Position numbers and translations under genes: made by a program
Assembly: GCA_021792135.1 (NCBI GenBank)
Contig: JAJYVF010000007.1
Span: 1-64,000 of the forward strand
Reading direction: 5' to 3'
DNA: 64,000 bases
From: Acidobacteriota bacterium
GTDB taxonomy: Bacteria; Acidobacteriota; Terriglobia; Terriglobales; Acidobacteriaceae
Shown here: positions 3,029 through 61,277 of the stretch, piece by piece
Layout: each line of letters opens with the position of its first letter
Position numbering within the stretch: position 1 is the stretch's first letter
Notes under the pieces: model-generated
What the model was told of the DNA's origin: nothing
Databases searched by the model: none
What the model saw: the letters and a program-made list of their open reading frames with translations, nothing else

Positions 3029-3464
3029 GTGCGAGGAGGGGAACTTTTCTCCTCAACTATAACAGAGCAGCGCGGCCGGTACGGAGTCGATGGCCCGCAG
3101 GCTGGGCCACCGAAGCGGCATCCGTCACAATCACCTCAGTCCGCATGCCCTCGACGGTCTGCGGCATGGGCAGCGATGAGGCAGGCGATTGTGGAACTGG
3201 AGATGAAGGCGCCGAAGGTGGCGCGGCTTCCGGAGGTCGCCCAGGCAGCACGCCTGACCGTGCAAGACCGCAGAGGTTTCCGTCCTGCAGCATGGTGACC
3301 GACATCACAGCGTACGAATGCTCGCCGGGAGTAACGTGATTCGTTTTGGCTGGGAGGCACATGCGAACACCAGCAAGCGGTATCGGTGGGGCAAAGTCGG
3401 GCGATGATTGCTCCGCAAGCAGCGGCGGCGCAGCCGTCGGCGAAGACGGCGGAGGCAGCCTCTC
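3029..3464. other. Intergenic stretch between tRNA-Glu and the CoA-transferase operon
   Basis: About 430 bases separate the tRNA from the operon start, and the operon promoter should lie here on the plus strand. One minus-strand frame, 3362 down to 3057 (101 codons, begins MCLPAKTNHV, with a Pro/Ser-rich middle), reads somewhat like a protein but has no Shine-Dalgarno and no family I know, so I do not call it. GGAGG at 3451-3455 is the ribosome-binding site of the next gene. Confidence 0.35.
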
Positions 3465-4787
3465 ATGATCTGGCGCGACGAATACAAGGCCCGGCTCATG
3501 ACCCCGGCCGCGGCGCTGGGGTCGGTTCGATCCGGCGATCGCGTCTGGATCCAGTCGGGGTGCGGCACGCCTTCCACGCTCGTCGATGCGCTGGTGGCGC
3601 AGGCCGGCGGCCTCCGGGATGTGGAGGTGGTCCACATGATGACCCTGGGCAGCGCGGATTACACCCGGCCGGAGTACGAGGGCCACTTTCGCCACCGCGG
3701 CCTCTTCCTGGGGTCCAACGTGCGCGAAGCCGTCGCCGCCGGCCGCGCCGACTACACCCCCATTTTCCTGAGCGAGATCGAAGGCCTCTTCGAGAGCGGT
3801 GTCCTGCCCCTCCAGGTCGTTCTCCTGCAGGTCTCCCCGCCCGATGCTCACGGTTTCGTGAGCCTGGGAACGACGGTGGACTGCACCCTGACCGCCGTGC
3901 AGCATGCAAGAACAGTAATTGCCGAGGTCAACGACCGCATGCCCCGCACCCACGGCGATACCTTCCTCCATGTGAACCGGATTTCGGCCTTCGTGGAAAC
4001 CTCCCGGCCGCTGCTGGAGTTTTCCACCGATCACTTTACGGATATCCACCTGCGCGTGGCCCGCAATGTGGCCTCGCTGATTCCGGACGGCGCTACCCTG
4101 CAGACCGGCATCGGCGGAATCCCCGAAGCGGTCCTGACCTGTCTCGACGACAAGCGTGACCTGGGAATCCACACGGAGATGTGCCCGGACGGCATCATCG
4201 AGCTCATCGAGTCGGGCGTGATCAACGGCGAGCGGAAGTCCCTGCACCGGCGCAAGGCGGTGCTGGCCTTTGTGCTCGGGTCGCAGCGGCTCTTCGACTT
4301 CCTCGACGATAACCCAATTTTCGAGTTTCGCTCGGTTTCCTATACCAACGACCCCTTTGTGGTGGCGCACAACGACCGCATGGTGGCCATCAACTCCGCT
4401 TTGCAGATCGATCTGACCGGCCAGGTCTGTGCGGATTCTCTTGGAACGAAACCCTACAGCGGCTTCGGCGGGCAGCTGGATTTCATCCGCGGCGCCGCCC
4501 GCTCCCGGGGCGGAGTGCCCATCATCGCTCTGCCCTCCACAGCGCTGCACGGCGAGATTTCGCGCATCGTCCCCGTGCTCGATCCCGGCGCCGGAGTCGT
4601 CACCTCGCGGGCCGATGTGCATTACGTCGTCACGGAGCACGGCATCGCGTACCTGCATGGCAGGACCCTGCGGGAGCGCGCCGAGGCCCTGATTGCCATT
4701 GCCGATCCGCGGTTCCAGGGCGAACTGGAGGATTTTGCGCTGCGCTCCCACTACCTGGAACGCAGAACGGCGGCGGCCTTCGCCTGA
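3465..4787 (+). CDS. Acetyl-CoA hydrolase/transferase family CoA-transferase (4-hydroxybutyrate CoA-transferase type)
   Basis: A 440-residue cytoplasmic enzyme of the class I CoA-transferase group that includes 4-hydroxybutyrate, butyrate and acetate CoA-transferases. ATG 3465 is chosen because GGAGG lies 9 nt upstream; the open frame above it is an Arg-run artefact. The glycine-rich stretch [10 protein letters not shown] (about 215-224) and the Glu of [10 protein letters not shown] (E238) match the catalytic glutamate that carries the CoA thioester. The C-terminal domain contains GQLDFIRGA and [10 protein letters not shown]. It heads an operon of 2-oxoacid:ferredoxin oxidoreductase, aminotransferase and glutamate dehydrogenase genes, with only 31 nt to the next gene. 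The context suggests it swaps CoA between branched acyl-CoA and acetate or another acid. The exact substrate cannot be read from sequence, and hydrolase activity is an alternative. Confidence 0.88.
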
Positions 4788-57702: not shown

Positions 57703-57840
57703 GCTGTTCCCTGCGCTTCTCCGGGAGCGGCGCGAGGCCGCTCCGGTACAGTACAATCATCTTTCTACCAGTTCAACCCTGTTGATCCCGAGCCACAACT
57801 ACGGCCGGGCTGAGGAGTCAGGTACTTGCGAGTGCGTAGC

Positions 57841-59388
57841 ATGGCATGGCTGGAGCGCCTGTGCGGTGTTCCCGGTCACAGAGTAGGCCGGACGTTACAA
57901 AGATTCGGCAGCGTCGTTCGTCGTCAACCACTGGGAACTGCGGGAGTTGTGGGCGGGATCGCAGGGCTGGCCCTGCTTGTGGCGATCGGATGCGGGAACC
58001 AGTACCGGCCCGTGGTTACGCCCATTCCGCCAACCGGGCCGGCACCCGAGCCAACAGCGGATGTTCTGCTGGTTTCGCAGCCGGATTTCACTCCCCTGCC
58101 TCAGGGGCTGAGCTCTCCCTGCACCGGCGTGGTCTATCCGACCCCGAGCGTCTTTACGCTGGTGAACTTCTCCGGGGACTCCATCGTGGCTCAGGCCAAC
58201 GGCGGCAATGGGCCTCTGACATTCTCGCTCGATATCAGCGGCTCCGGCTACGCCTTTGCTCCGAACTGCGATGGAACCCTGACGACGGCGCTGCCCAGCG
58301 TAGCATCGCTGCTGACGCAGAAGGTACAGACCAGTACGCTCCTGCCGGATTCGGAGCCCACCAACACACTGCTCGCCAACGGCAGCCTGTATGTGACGGA
58401 AGTGGGTCTGCACGGGCCCACCTGCCAGGTAACGAATTGCGTGGCGCAGATGACCGGCTCACCGGAGGCATTGAAACAGGAGATACCGGTGGCGCCGTCG
58501 GTCATCAACCTGTCGGGTTACGGTTCGGGTGAGAGGATCTATTCCATCAGCCAGGGCAATTCCCTGAGCGGAACGCAACCCGCATGGGGCGACTGCGATA
58601 ATCCCTCGGCGGTAACCGCAAACGGCGAGGCTGATGCGATTGAGACGGTCAACAACACGATTTCCGCGCGCCTGCCGCTGGGCATTTGTCCCGTTTACGG
58701 CTTCATGACCCCGGACACCTATCGCACCTTCGTGATGAACCGCGGAAGCGGAACCGTAACGGTGATTAACTCGCAGCTGAATGCCATCGACTCGCAGCAT
58801 CCGACGATCACGGTGGGCGCCGGACCGGTCTACGCCGATTACTACCAGAACGGGCAGCTGCTGGTGACGGCCAATTACGACTCCAACACCATCAGCATCA
58901 TCGATGTGAGCCTGGACGTCTACGGCAACGACAGCTCAACTTTCGGCACGGTGCGAGCCACGGTGCCTGTGGGACTCCATCCGGTAGAGGTCTCCGTGCT
59001 GCAGGACGGAAGCCGCATCTACATTGCGAATCAGGGACAGATTGCCCCCGACGGCACAGTCGCTGTTCCGGGCAGCGTAACGGTGGTGAATCTGACGACC
59101 TTCGCGGTGGAAAAGACGATCCCGCTCACCTCGAACCCGCATGCGATCGCGTCGGTCTATAACTATCCGATCGGGAAAGTCTACATCTCTTCGCAGAACA
59201 GCCCCTACCTGACGATCATCCGCACCGACACGGATATTGTGAGTGCAACGCCCGAGATGCAGGGCAACATTATTGAGATGCGGGTAAGCTCGCAATTCCC
59301 CGATCAGACGGCCAGCAGCTCTTCGCCGGCGAGCAGCACCGGCAACTATCAGGTGGAAAGCCGCTCGGTGGGCTCCGGAGCGCCTTAA
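57841..59388 (+). CDS. Exported beta-propeller (YncE-like) protein, possible lipoprotein
   Basis: About 515 residues from ATG 57841; TTG 57826 and GTG 57832 are alternatives. After a basic leader comes the hydrophobic segment LGTAGVVGGIAGLALLVAIG followed by Cys (GCGN), which resembles a lipobox, though the leader is long (about 45 residues). The body repeats blades such as TFVMNRGSGTVTVINSQLN, LLVTANYDSNTISIIDVSL, RIYIANQGQIAPDGTVAVPG and KVYISSQNSPYLTIIRTDTD, the YncE/lactonase-like seven-blade pattern. The C-terminus is Ser-rich. Likely an envelope binding protein; no enzymatic residues are evident. Confidence 0.85.
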   Translation: MAWLERLCGVPGHRVGRTLQRFGSVVRRQPLGTAGVVGGIAGLALLVAIGCGNQYRPVVTPIPPTGPAPEPTADVLLVSQPDFTPLPQGLSSPCTGVVYPTPSVFTLVNFSGDSIVAQANGGNGPLTFSLDISGSGYAFAPNCDGTLTTALPSVASLLTQKVQTSTLLPDSEPTNTLLANGSLYVTEVGLHGPTCQVTNCVAQMTGSPEALKQEIPVAPSVINLSGYGSGERIYSISQGNSLSGTQPAWGDCDNPSAVTANGEADAIETVNNTISARLPLGICPVYGFMTPDTYRTFVMNRGSGTVTVINSQLNAIDSQHPTITVGAGPVYADYYQNGQLLVTANYDSNTISIIDVSLDVYGNDSSTFGTVRATVPVGLHPVEVSVLQDGSRIYIANQGQIAPDGTVAVPGSVTVVNLTTFAVEKTIPLTSNPHAIASVYNYPIGKVYISSQNSPYLTIIRTDTDIVSATPEMQGNIIEMRVSSQFPDQTASSSSPASSTGNYQVESRSVGSGAP

Positions 59389-59393
59389 GTACA

Positions 59394-59821
59394 GGCAACA
59401 GGAAACAGGCAATAGAAGAACAACTGCGAGCCGGGTGCTGGCTTTACCTCTCCGAAGAGACCTATGGTCTTTCCCCTCAGCTTCGCCGGGCGGCCGTCTC
59501 TGTCGCGAGCACGATTGCAGAGGGGCATGGGCGCACCCCCAGCCGGGACCACATTCAATTCCTCGGCATCGCACCCGGATCGAACCCCGGACTGCAAACG
59601 CACCTGGTCATAGCCGGAAAGCGGGGTATGGTCGATCCTCGAAAACTGAGTGGAACCGAGGGCTTCTCTGGTGAGATTGCGCAGATGCTGGCCGCACCCA
59701 TCAGAAGGATTCGACGTAACGAACACACAACAGGCGGCCTGATGACAGCGAGGAGACTTGTCAATCAGGCTGATCCCTGTTCCTGCTAGCTGTTCCCTGC
59801 AGTTAACTGCTCCCTGTTGCC
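59394..59821. repeat. Imperfect 15-bp inverted repeats framing a decayed gene
   Basis: GGCAACAGGAAACAG at 59394-59408 matches the reverse complement of CTGCTCCCTGTTGCC at 59807-59821 in 13 of 15 positions. The 428-bp interval holds the four-helix-bundle pseudogene. The left arm begins 6 nt after the beta-propeller stop and the right arm ends 17 nt before the TolC stop. This suggests a small cassette inserted between two envelope genes. No target-site duplication was identified with certainty. Confidence 0.6.
59430..59789 (+). pseudogene. Truncated four-helix-bundle protein (23S rRNA intervening-sequence type)
   Basis: The plus-strand frame ending TAG 59787-59789 reads YGLSPQLRRAAVSVASTIAE, GHGRTPSRDHIQFLGIAPGS, LQTHLVIAGKRGMVDPRKLS and GEIAQMLAAPIRRIRR. 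These are the conserved helices of the four-helix-bundle family found as inserts in 23S rRNA genes of some bacteria. The usual N-terminus (about 30 residues with a WQKAM-like motif) is missing and no start codon with a ribosome-binding site precedes it. Substitutions such as GSNPG for GSNLE suggest decay. It lies inside the inverted repeats listed above. Confidence 0.75.
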
Positions 59822-59837
59822 AATCCCCCGCCTTTAG

Positions 59838-61277
59838 TTAGGGCGCAATGCCTATCTCGTAGTTCAGGGTTGAGAGAGACAACCGATACTGATAGCGGGC
59901 GTTGGTGTCCTGAATCTGCGCGCTGGTCTGCTGCAGCTGGGCCTGGGTCAGCTCGACGATGGAACTGAGGCCCATCTGATAGCGGGTCTGTGCCAGCGCC
60001 ATGGCCAGATTGGCTTCCTTGACCAGCTGCGCTGTTACGGCCATCCGCTGCCAGTTGTTGTTCGTCTGAAGCCATGCGATACGAACGTCGCGCACGATGC
60101 GGTCCCGCAGGTCGCGGCTGCCTTCGGCAGCCGCCTGCGCGCGGTACCGGGCTTCCTTCGCCTGGGATATGTACAGGAAGCCATTGAAAATGGGAATACT
60201 CATGTTGCCCCCAATACCTCCCCAGTAGTCGGCGTTGTAGTAGCGGTCGACGCGGAAGGGGACGGTTCCCGCCGTACCCTCAGCGGAGATGGTAGGCAGA
60301 AGCTGATCCCACTGGGAACGAGCATACTTCTGAGCAGCCGTGGTGCCGTAGTTGAGAGCCTGGAAATCGGGGCGCTGCTGCAATGCGGTCTGGATCAGGG
60401 AGTCGGCGGAATCCGGCGGAGGCGGCGGGGCTTCCTTGTCCTCGATGAGCCGGAACTGGACATTATGATCGAGGCCGAGCACCGCGTCGAGCGTGGCCAT
60501 GCTGGCATCGGCATTGTTCTGAGCGTCGAGCTGCAGCAGTTGGGCCTCGGAGAGGTTGACGTCCGCAAAACTGAGATCGAGGATGGATTTCAGCTTATTC
60601 TGCGTCATCTCCTTCACCTGAACGTCGGTGGTATTGCGGGTAATCACCGTCTGTTTGGCAACATCGAGAAGAGCCTGGGCTGTGAGGGCATCGTAGAAAG
60701 CCTGGTCGGTGGCCAGAACGATCTCTTCCACCGTGGCCAGAGCACTCGCGTTGGAAGCCTTTTCCTGAAGTTCGCGCGAGAGCACGAGATTGTGGGTATG
60801 CCCGAAGTCGTAGAGGAGCTGGGTGATGTCCACGCCGGCGCCGGCGTGCTCAAAAAGGCGCGAGGCGTTGAGCGCTCCGGCGGAAAGGCGAGATCCGTTT
60901 TGCGCCTCGACGGCGGTCATGGCAAAGTTCGCGTTGGGAAGTTCCACGGCCCGGGCCTCGCGATAGACCTGGTGCTGCGCCAGAGCCAGCAGCTTACCGA
61001 CACTCACGCGCGGATTGTTGCGGATGGCCATCTGCTCCGCCTGGGCCCGCGTGAGTCCGGGCATCTGGCTCTGGGGCGGCGTCTTCTCCGGCGAAGACAG
61101 GTTGACCTGCGCGGGGGGCTGCCGATTTCCGTTCGCAGGCGAAGCGACCGACGCCCCGGCCTGCGCAATCTCCACGGGTGAAATCATCTGCGGTCCGGGC
61201 GCAGCGGGAAGTTTCGTCTGGGCAAATACAAGACCGCCACCGGACAGCACGGCCATCAGGAAAAAAGATCGAATCAT
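59838..61277 (-). CDS. TolC-family outer membrane efflux protein
   Basis: A 479-residue outer-membrane channel with signal peptide (MIRSFFLMAVLSGGGLVFAQ). Two OEP repeats are visible. The first includes RAQAEQMAIRNNPRVSVGKL and TVEEIVLATDQAFYDALTAQ; the second includes ADSLIQTALQQRPDFQALNY, QSLLPTISAEG-like text (QLLPTISAEGTAG) and MALAQTRYQMGLSSIVELTQ with AQLQQTSAQIQDTNARYQYR. It forms the exit duct of a tripartite pump. Its ATG (61275-61277) overlaps the stop of the RND gene (ATGA), so the two are coupled. A membrane-fusion subunit would be expected upstream, beyond the window. Confidence 0.93.
   Translation of the reverse strand: MIRSFFLMAVLSGGGLVFAQTKLPAAPGPQMISPVEIAQAGASVASPANGNRQPPAQVNLSSPEKTPPQSQMPGLTRAQAEQMAIRNNPRVSVGKLLALAQHQVYREARAVELPNANFAMTAVEAQNGSRLSAGALNASRLFEHAGAGVDITQLLYDFGHTHNLVLSRELQEKASNASALATVEEIVLATDQAFYDALTAQALLDVAKQTVITRNTTDVQVKEMTQNKLKSILDLSFADVNLSEAQLLQLDAQNNADASMATLDAVLGLDHNVQFRLIEDKEAPPPPPDSADSLIQTALQQRPDFQALNYGTTAAQKYARSQWDQLLPTISAEGTAGTVPFRVDRYYNADYWGGIGGNMSIPIFNGFLYISQAKEARYRAQAAAEGSRDLRDRIVRDVRIAWLQTNNNWQRMAVTAQLVKEANLAMALAQTRYQMGLSSIVELTQAQLQQTSAQIQDTNARYQYRLSLSTLNYEIGIAP

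What the first reader, a model, noticed from the sequence alone, without database searches (positions are those of the whole stretch)
59394..59821. Four-helix-bundle gene remnant bounded by inverted repeats: a possible mini mobile cassette
The decayed gene of the 23S-rRNA intervening-sequence type lies inside 13/15-matching inverted ends that begin 6 nt after one gene and stop 17 nt before the next. These proteins normally sit in rRNA genes or beside reverse transcriptases, and how the stand-alone copies scattered in genomes spread is not well explained. Conserved ends would point to transposition by a trans-acting enzyme, like MITEs or REPINs.
Basis: partly seen in the sequence, partly recalled or inferred. 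Interest (0 to 1): 0.55.

Follow-up and report, generated by a model that had tools for sequence, protein, structure and literature searches.

The report
Gene cassette with private repeat ends
A small gene found across bacteria sits between mirror-image stretches of seven-letter repeats that match each other but differ from copy to copy; the copy here is a decayed one, and the pattern ties two unexplained features of bacterial genomes together.

Summary
At 59388-59820 a 5'-truncated four-helix-bundle (PF05635/TIGR02436) gene lies between arrays of seven-base repeats in opposite orientation (left 4 units, right about 7). The intact copy elsewhere in this genome has matched inverted arrays too, of a different unit. 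In relatives from more than ten phyla, 68 of 76 loci have inverted, locus-specific arrays above the 99th percentile of shifted-position controls; 9 of 76 reach it in direct orientation. Units differ between loci (86 distinct heptads in 104 loci) but share a grammar (NNNNNAG, G-rich strand first). Arrays abut the ends of neighbouring genes. At pheS/pheT eight sister genomes lack the whole unit, and the four overlapping bases are doubled around it. Between related copies at different sites the unit tends to travel with the gene lineage. So gene plus arrays behave as one inserted unit whose ends are defined by repeat architecture, not by a fixed sequence. The 23S rRNA intervening sequence of Coxiella (28-bp terminal stem, heptamers before an S23 gene) looks like the same kind of thing. 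REP/MITE-type fixed ends are not supported. How it moves is not shown.

The parts
57826..59388 (+). Upstream neighbour, protein-coding ORF of 520 aa; stop TAA at 59386-59388 touches the left array
   Evidence: same gene in several sister genomes at this junction
59381..59390 (.). Candidate left copy of a target duplication, CGCCTTAAGT
   Evidence: direct repeat 90% with 59829-59838; empty junction in sister genome G002 is CACCTTAAGGCGC (L148); imperfect, so only a candidate
59388..59415 (+). Left arm: four tandem heptads in register, AGTACAG GCAACAG GAAACAG GCAATAG
59451..59693 (+). Remnant of a four-helix-bundle (23S_rRNA_IVP) gene lacking its first 24 profile positions and a start codon; frame open to 59789
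   Evidence: nearest relatives L015 45/79, L026 44/79 and L146 43/79 identical residues
59770..59820 (-). Right arm: seven NNNNYAG heptads read on the minus strand (GCAACAG, GGAGCAG, ACTGCAG, GGAACAG, CTAGCAG, GGAACAG, GGATCAG), two register breaks
59829..59838 (.). Candidate right copy of the target duplication, CGCCTTTAGT
59838..61277 (-). Downstream neighbour, convergent ORF of 479 aa (TolC-like by my reading of the sequence; not searched against families)

Best explanation
This is a decayed copy of a compact insertion cassette: one four-helix-bundle (4HB, S23/IVP type) gene between two inverted arrays of short tandem repeats, about 400-900 bp in all, placed at the ends of neighbouring genes. 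Shown: architecture, breadth, gap-filling placement, empty sites, inversion of the cassette between species, and that the repeat unit tends to follow the gene lineage between sites. Inferred: gene and arrays move (or once moved) as one unit whose ends are recognised by structure and repeat grammar (hairpin or cruciform of NNNNNAG units), probably by the 4HB pentamer itself with host or borrowed enzymes doing the cutting and copying; afterwards the arms drift, kept alike by slippage within an arm and by hairpin-templated repair or replacement between arms. Loss of the gene leaves gene-less heptad hairpins. The array can supply a stop codon for the upstream gene and lies outside both genes, so insertions are tolerated. 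The rRNA intervening sequences are then rRNA-located members of the same kind.
For: Inverted within-locus score 23.0 against 9.1 (mismatched loci), 9.5 (shifted positions, n=277) and 11.1 (direct orientation); 68 of 76 above the 99th control percentile. Also 24 of 30 in the genus above the 95th percentile of mismatched loci, 28 of 30, 39 of 49, 7 of 7 plasmid loci fetched out of 25 records, 4 distinct elements, 17 of 24 viral-flagged contigs. Empty site: pheS and pheT overlap by four bases (ATGA in 3, GTGA in 5) in 8 of 10 genomes of the genus with a readable junction; in G000 the unit sits between ATGA and ATGC, and in G006 a gene-less remnant sits between two ATGA. Different-site pairs: arms cross-match in 126 of 10002 pairs under 60% protein identity, 38 of 169 at or above 60% (24 of 132, 10 of 31, 4 of 6 in rising bands). 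Flipped cassettes at one site: L009/L021, L016/L034, L031/L034. Left array begins a median 1 nt (quartiles -4 to 9) after a co-directional stop, right array ends a median 0 nt from a convergent stop. G-rich strand first in 127 loci against 13; grammar NNNNNAG 2.01 bits against at most 1.57 in 20 column-shuffled controls. IVS of Coxiella: 28-bp terminal stem and tandem GACAGAT before the S23 gene (PMC4990558, passages).
Against: No transposition was caught: within four genomes with 10-17 copies (49 of 55 matches compared) no two copies exceed 63% protein identity. Different-site pairs are not independent, and most of them even above 60% identity (131 of 169) do not share the unit. At short range the arms change separately: orthologues L230/L231/L239 differ in the left arm while the right arm stays almost the same, and so do L330/L331. 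Gene-less inverted repeats stand at the rpsG/fusA junction in the 7 sister genomes whose junction I fetched (judged by eye), which also fits hairpins that precede the gene. The target duplication at the window site is imperfect. The doubled bases at pheS/pheT may be forced by selection. Ten of 49 g43 copies fall below the threshold, eight of them in sets without arrays. G122 with 10 copies showed no periodic pair in 200 kb. The scan query was built from 16 proteins of this phylum, so array-less subfamilies may be under-sampled.
Confidence: 0.6

Rival explanations
1. The gene inserts into hairpins of short repeats that were already there; the arrays belong to the target, as the IVS lies in rRNA helices.
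For: Gene-less hairpins with private units occupy the rpsG/fusA junction in the 7 sister genomes fetched (by eye), and scpB/rluB in G176 has a gene-less hairpin of the unit that flanks the gene in G144. Gene-less heptad hairpins occur at about 5-10 per Mb in two of the four 4HB-bearing genomes sampled (G176, G254; none in G000 and G122).
Against: pheS/pheT junctions without the gene have no array in 8 genomes; pdhA/pdhB is clean in G184; the unit tends to follow the gene lineage to different sites; no periodic inverted pair in 600 kb of two genomes without the gene.
Confidence: 0.2
2. The arrays are kept complementary because the transcript must fold: an RNA-processing cassette cut out or capped by RNase III, like the rRNA IVS, with no present mobility.
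For: rRNA IVS precedent; ATG depleted in the upstream arm (25 seen, 88 expected) and constant strand polarity point to transcription.
Against: Mismatches between arms show no excess of those that pair as G-U in the sense transcript (135) over those that would pair only in the antisense one (137), 107 loci; cassettes occur flipped relative to their neighbours.
Confidence: 0.15
3. A REP/REPIN-like or MITE-like element moved in trans by a Y1 (HUH) transposase or another fixed-sequence transposase.
For: Y1 and 4HB copy numbers correlate over 247 genomes (Spearman 0.46; presence 93/25/73/56, Fisher p 0.0002); gene-less stretches with the unit of the window exist in this genome.
Confidence: 0.05

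Closest known systems
23S rRNA intervening sequences with an S23 gene (Coxiella IVS, PMC4990558)
   Same: Same gene family, about 430 nt, terminal inverted repeats forming a 28-bp stem, tandem heptamers (GACAGAT) just before the gene
   Different: Those lie inside 23S rRNA and are cut out by RNase III; these lie at gene ends in many loci, with units private to each locus
Heptameric simple repeats of Xanthomonas and Nostoc (PMC4692102) and TAACTGA repeats of Beggiatoaceae (PMC4679880); cyanobacterial STRR (recalled)
   Same: Seven-base units, intergenic, close to ORF ends; 70 and 75 inverted convergent pairs reported in two Xanthomonas genomes
   Different: Those papers follow one chosen unit per genome and give no gene link in the passages and sections I read; here the unit is private to a locus and brackets a 4HB gene
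REP/REPIN elements with RAYT (Y1) transposases
   Same: Small hairpin elements at gene ends, gene-bearing and gene-less forms
   Different: REPs have a conserved sequence within a genome and a Y1 enzyme (recalled); neither holds here throughout
DGR accessory protein Avd (NF033474)
   Same: Same fold family: 14 of 16 proteins match weakly
   Different: Below the curated cut-off for the member shown; 24 of 46 copy-rich genomes have no RVT_1 match
XCC0516 of Xanthomonas campestris, PDB 2gsc
   Same: Solved relative of the intact proteins (E 2.6e-39); the S23 protein of X. campestris is reported as a homopentamer of four-helix bundles (passage; that the two are one protein is my inference)
   Different: Its genomic flanks were not examined here

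Membership tests
PF05635 / TIGR02436 four-helix-bundle protein | Score over the curated cut-off | tested here: met
   Window remnant 65.4 bits against 33.8; 16 of 16 relatives match TIGR02436, the one shown in full 113.8 against 24
PF05635 / TIGR02436 four-helix-bundle protein | Complete, translatable gene | tested here: not met
   First 24 profile positions and any usual start codon missing in the window copy
rRNA intervening sequence (IVS) | S23 gene within terminal inverted repeats | tested here: met
   general
rRNA intervening sequence (IVS) | Location inside a 23S rRNA gene | tested here: not met
   Lies between two protein-coding genes
rRNA intervening sequence (IVS) | Excision from the transcript by RNase III | not testable with these tools
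   -
REP / REPIN with RAYT | Conserved palindromic end sequence shared by copies in one genome | tested here: not met
   Two gene-bearing copies in this genome have different units; the window unit does recur gene-less at two sites
REP / REPIN with RAYT | Y1 transposase always present | tested here: not met
   5 of 46 copy-rich genomes lack a PF01797 match
MITE | Fixed terminal inverted repeats plus target duplication | tested here: not met
   No fixed terminal sequence; 4-bp duplication seen at one site only
Diversity-generating retroelement (Avd) | Avd model over its cut-off and a reverse transcriptase nearby | tested here: not met
   Avd model 38.6 bits against cut-off 80 for L002; the only RVT_1 match in this genome is on another contig, C73

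The most novel reading that the evidence does not exclude
A pan-bacterial class of minimal mobile cassette (one 4HB gene, two inverted heptad arrays) whose ends have no fixed sequence: each copy carries its own matched pair, specified only by a seven-base rhythm with an AG in phase and by hairpin complementarity. It would be the source of the intergenic heptameric repeats of bacteria (as gene-less remnants) and of the rRNA intervening sequences (as rRNA-located copies), with the 4HB pentamer as its end-binding protein.
Probability: 0.45. Interest if true: 0.88.

Novelty: new variant of a known kind. Interest (0 to 1): 0.78.

Why it matters
The 4HB/S23 genes are common (118 of 247 genomes of this phylum, up to 17 copies), and the papers I saw give them no known function or way of spreading; intergenic heptameric repeats have likewise been described without a source. 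A shared architecture over more than ten phyla links the two, gives a working definition of the cassette, and yields tests: does the protein bind its own arms, does the cassette move or flip, are heptamers its scars. An element whose ends are private to each copy would also be an unusual answer to how an element recognises itself.

Tried and rejected
Three small ORFs of the window element against Pfam gave nothing; the match lies in a frame without a start codon. The element as DNA has no second match in its genome. The L002 protein has no match in 50,697 phage records (tblastn, 1e-5). Rfam: no family at gathering score in nine loci. Folding the window element as single-stranded DNA gave only z -2.05. 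RNA selection by G-U bias: no asymmetry. Reverse transcriptase as necessary partner: no RVT_1 match in 24 of 46 copy-rich genomes. Xanthomonadaceae test of GGGAATC repeats: not possible, the search needs a genome handle as centre. No structure was predicted, because solved relatives exist.

Counting notes. Loci are not a random sample: one search kept the best 80 of 585 relatives of a query alignment from this phylum, searches gave loci for the best matches only. Flanks: 300 nt up and 250 down, 300, 350 with the threshold (13.6) taken. One search used 76 of 80 loci (flanks under 200 nt dropped). One search used 49 of the 55 matches (six partial or weak rows dropped). One search used 23 pairs of loci, a changed selection from the 24 pairs; two of the 23 share one flank only. 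Searches used only loci with arm score 16 or more; searches also left out duplicate records of one locus. In one search neighbours were called by ORF length and array edges are those of the best local alignment. One search defined the heptad grammar on arms chosen by their own inverted match, and its controls had fewer restarts, so its information content is descriptive. Copy counts may be lower bounds where not all candidates were scored.

Full report
What is in the window. Between a gene that ends at 59388 and a convergent gene that ends at 59838 lies a 5'-truncated four-helix-bundle (4HB) gene: PF05635, 65.4 bits, profile positions 25-105, 59451-59693, no stop inside. The frame stays open to 59789 but holds no usual start codon before 59628. 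Residues that are invariant in 16 relatives are changed (N45 to T, E71 to G, my reading), as expected of a gene out of use. On either side stand heptads in opposite orientation: left AGTACAG GCAACAG GAAACAG GCAATAG in one register from 59388; right, on the minus strand, seven NNNNYAG units from 59820 to 59770 with two breaks. That short match alone would not stand out (score 10.0; shifted controls of other loci mean 9.5, 95th percentile 12.5); the tandem pattern does (3 matches in 64 kb, all at these two ends, 0.01 expected, pattern composed after reading the left arm). The looser pattern NNNNYAG three times over also occurs in the window only at these ends, but base composition alone would give a few hits, so I do not count it.

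The other copy in the same genome. The only other PF05635 match, L002, is intact and lies between pheS and pheT (named by my reading). It too is bracketed by inverted arrays, of octads (GAGTCAGC on one side, GCTGACTC on the other). So the ends are not a shared sequence. The window's unit recurs without a gene at two other places: L005 with both orientations, L004 with stretches that I could not pair clearly. At L005 the upstream frame, as I read it, runs into the array and stops in it.

How general it is. I compared upstream flanks with the reverse complement of downstream flanks by local alignment (flank lengths in the counting notes). In 76 loci from a scan of bacterial and archaeal genomes (record titles name more than ten phyla, and titles of metagenome bins can be wrong) the mean within-locus inverted score is 23.0; mismatched loci give 9.1, positions shifted 1.3-1.8 kb away 9.5 (n=277, 99th percentile 13.6), direct orientation 11.1. 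68 of 76 loci pass 13.6 inverted, 9 of 76 direct. Other sets: genus of the window 24 of 30 over the 95th percentile of mismatched loci (13.5), phylum 28 of 30, four genomes of one other genus 39 of 49 (three of these loci also), cyanobacterial plasmids 7 of 7 fetched, of which 4 distinct elements, viral-flagged contigs 17 of 24, several nearly identical. The window copy itself is among the 6 of 30 misses. The query alignment came from this phylum, so array-less subfamilies may be under-sampled.

Shared grammar. Of 144 arms, 104 have period 7, 22 period 8, 6 period 9, 1 period 11 and 11 none. 86 different heptads occur in 104 loci, yet an AG keeps its phase (A 0.66, G 0.78; 2.01 bits in all, 20 column-shuffled controls 1.51 on average, 1.57 at most). 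The strand upstream of the gene is richer in G than in C in 127 loci and poorer in 13. ATG is depleted in it (25 seen, 88 expected), TAG enriched (166, 87).

Where it sits. Of 107 elements (399-894 bp, median 499), both neighbours could be called in 94; the left neighbour is co-directional in 75. Its stop lies a median 1 nt before the array (quartiles -4 to 9); a convergent right neighbour ends a median 0 nt from it; a co-directional right neighbour starts a median 13.5 nt after it. Examples: rpsG/fusA, pdhA/pdhB and scpB/rluB (gene names by my reading of the flanks), nrdB/nrdA on a Nostoc plasmid (annotated), and directly after tRNA-Ser and selenocysteine tRNA genes. In L234 and L241 the upstream frame runs into the array, which supplies the stop (sequence, my reading).

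Empty sites. pheS/pheT: ten genomes of the genus have a readable junction. In eight the genes overlap by four bases (ATGA in 3, GTGA in 5) with no array. In G000 the cassette stands between ATGA and ATGC; in G006 a gene-less remnant with the right array stands between two ATGA. G011's match ended at a contig edge and G008 had no match. At the window's own junction I read ten of twelve loci. G002 is empty, the two stops sharing TTAA; G004 and G001 have inverted heptad arrays of another unit and no gene; G008 has an intact 4HB gene with AGTAGCC arrays next to the same downstream gene, with a different upstream neighbour. The other five besides G000 show no 4HB gene and no clear arrays by eye.

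Does the unit belong to the element or to the site? Among pairs of loci without homologous flanks (left, right or flipped), arms of one match arms of the other in 126 of 10002 pairs below 60% protein identity, 24 of 132 at 60-65%, 10 of 31 at 65-70% and 4 of 6 at 70-80% (pairs are not independent, and most pairs above 60% still do not match). Two Nostocales plasmid copies, 78% identical at different sites, share the AGAAGTC/AGGAGTC type of unit; L026, one of the nearest relatives of the window remnant, has the window's unit in its upstream flank, though its own inverted score is only 7.0. This favours arrays as part of the element. Against it: in genus g43 the rpsG/fusA junction carries gene-less inverted repeats in the 7 sister genomes fetched (by eye), and scpB/rluB in G176 has a gene-less hairpin of the unit that brackets the gene in G144. 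Both fit loss of the gene, or insertion into older hairpins.

Change over time. In 15 of 46 pairs that share flanking genes (11 of 23, 4 of 23) both arms match within each locus (16 or more) but not across (below 13.6), for example L232/L240 with 79% identical proteins. So both arms changed together, or were replaced together. At short range this is not seen: the left arms of L230, L231 and L239 differ while the right arms are almost the same. Mismatches between arms show no sense-strand G-U bias (135 against 137), which speaks against selection on the folded sense transcript. Three locus pairs show the cassette flipped between the same neighbours (L009/L021, L016/L034, L031/L034), as expected if inverted arrays recombine.

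Who moves it? Unknown. Y1 transposase and 4HB copy numbers correlate (Spearman 0.46) but with obvious confounding; of 46 genomes with six or more 4HB copies 41 have Y1, 22 have a reverse transcriptase match and 3 have neither. No recent copies within a genome were seen in four genomes (best 63% identity, 49 of 55 matches compared). My preferred reading, an element recognised by hairpin and heptad rhythm with the 4HB pentamer as end-binding protein, is inference; the pentamer is reported for the Xanthomonas relative (passage in PMC4990558; relative 2gsc).

What is known. The Coxiella intervening sequence, 428 nt, has a 28-bp terminal stem and tandem GACAGAT heptamers in front of its S23 gene; function and origin of such elements are called unclear (PMC4990558, passages). 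Heptameric repeats near ORF ends, with 70 and 75 inverted convergent pairs in two Xanthomonas genomes, are described without a function or a gene link (PMC4692102, passages and two sections); likewise TAACTGA repeats (PMC4679880, passages). Ten searches of the open-access library listed no paper whose title or abstract beginning puts stand-alone 4HB genes and inverted heptad arrays together; subscription journals and preprints are not held.

Survey limits. Periodic inverted pairs (score 15 or more) in sampled stretches: G254 5 in 400 kb (one around its 4HB gene, four with loops of 11-48 nt), G176 2 in 400 kb (both gene-less), G000 1 in 458 kb (not heptad, apparently coding; its two known 4HB copies score below the threshold), G122 none in 200 kb, and the two genomes without 4HB matches, G212 and G220, none in 600 kb.

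Noticed in passing
L313, L314, L315 (pdhA/pdhB junction of G168, G136, G046): The junction that holds a 4HB cassette in G144 holds other small genes in sister genomes (by eye: a RelE-like pair, a nucleotidyltransferase-like gene, a DUF4160/DUF2442-like pair; not searched). A gene-junction hot spot.
   Followed up: no
L252, L253, L255, L257, L258, L259, L273, L274: 4HB copies without inverted arrays (scores 7.5-10.5), mostly as orthologues in two species: probably separate subfamilies with another way of life.
   Followed up: no
L260-L263 and L266-L268: 4HB cassettes start directly after tRNA-Ser and selenocysteine tRNA genes in several species.
   Followed up: partly
L104, about 2600-2820 and 3230-3470: A Planctomycetota copy with giant arms: more than 200 nt of GGACGGT-type heptads on each side.
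   Followed up: no
L009/L021, L016/L034, L031/L034: The cassette lies in opposite orientations between the same neighbours in different species.
   Followed up: partly
G088:C1, five places: Five Y1 transposase matches with the same score in one genome not listed among the 4HB-bearing ones: a recently active family.
   Followed up: no
window 59571-59582 and 59427-59438: A 12-nt inverted repeat (11/12) inside the remnant gene region; probably chance.
   Followed up: no
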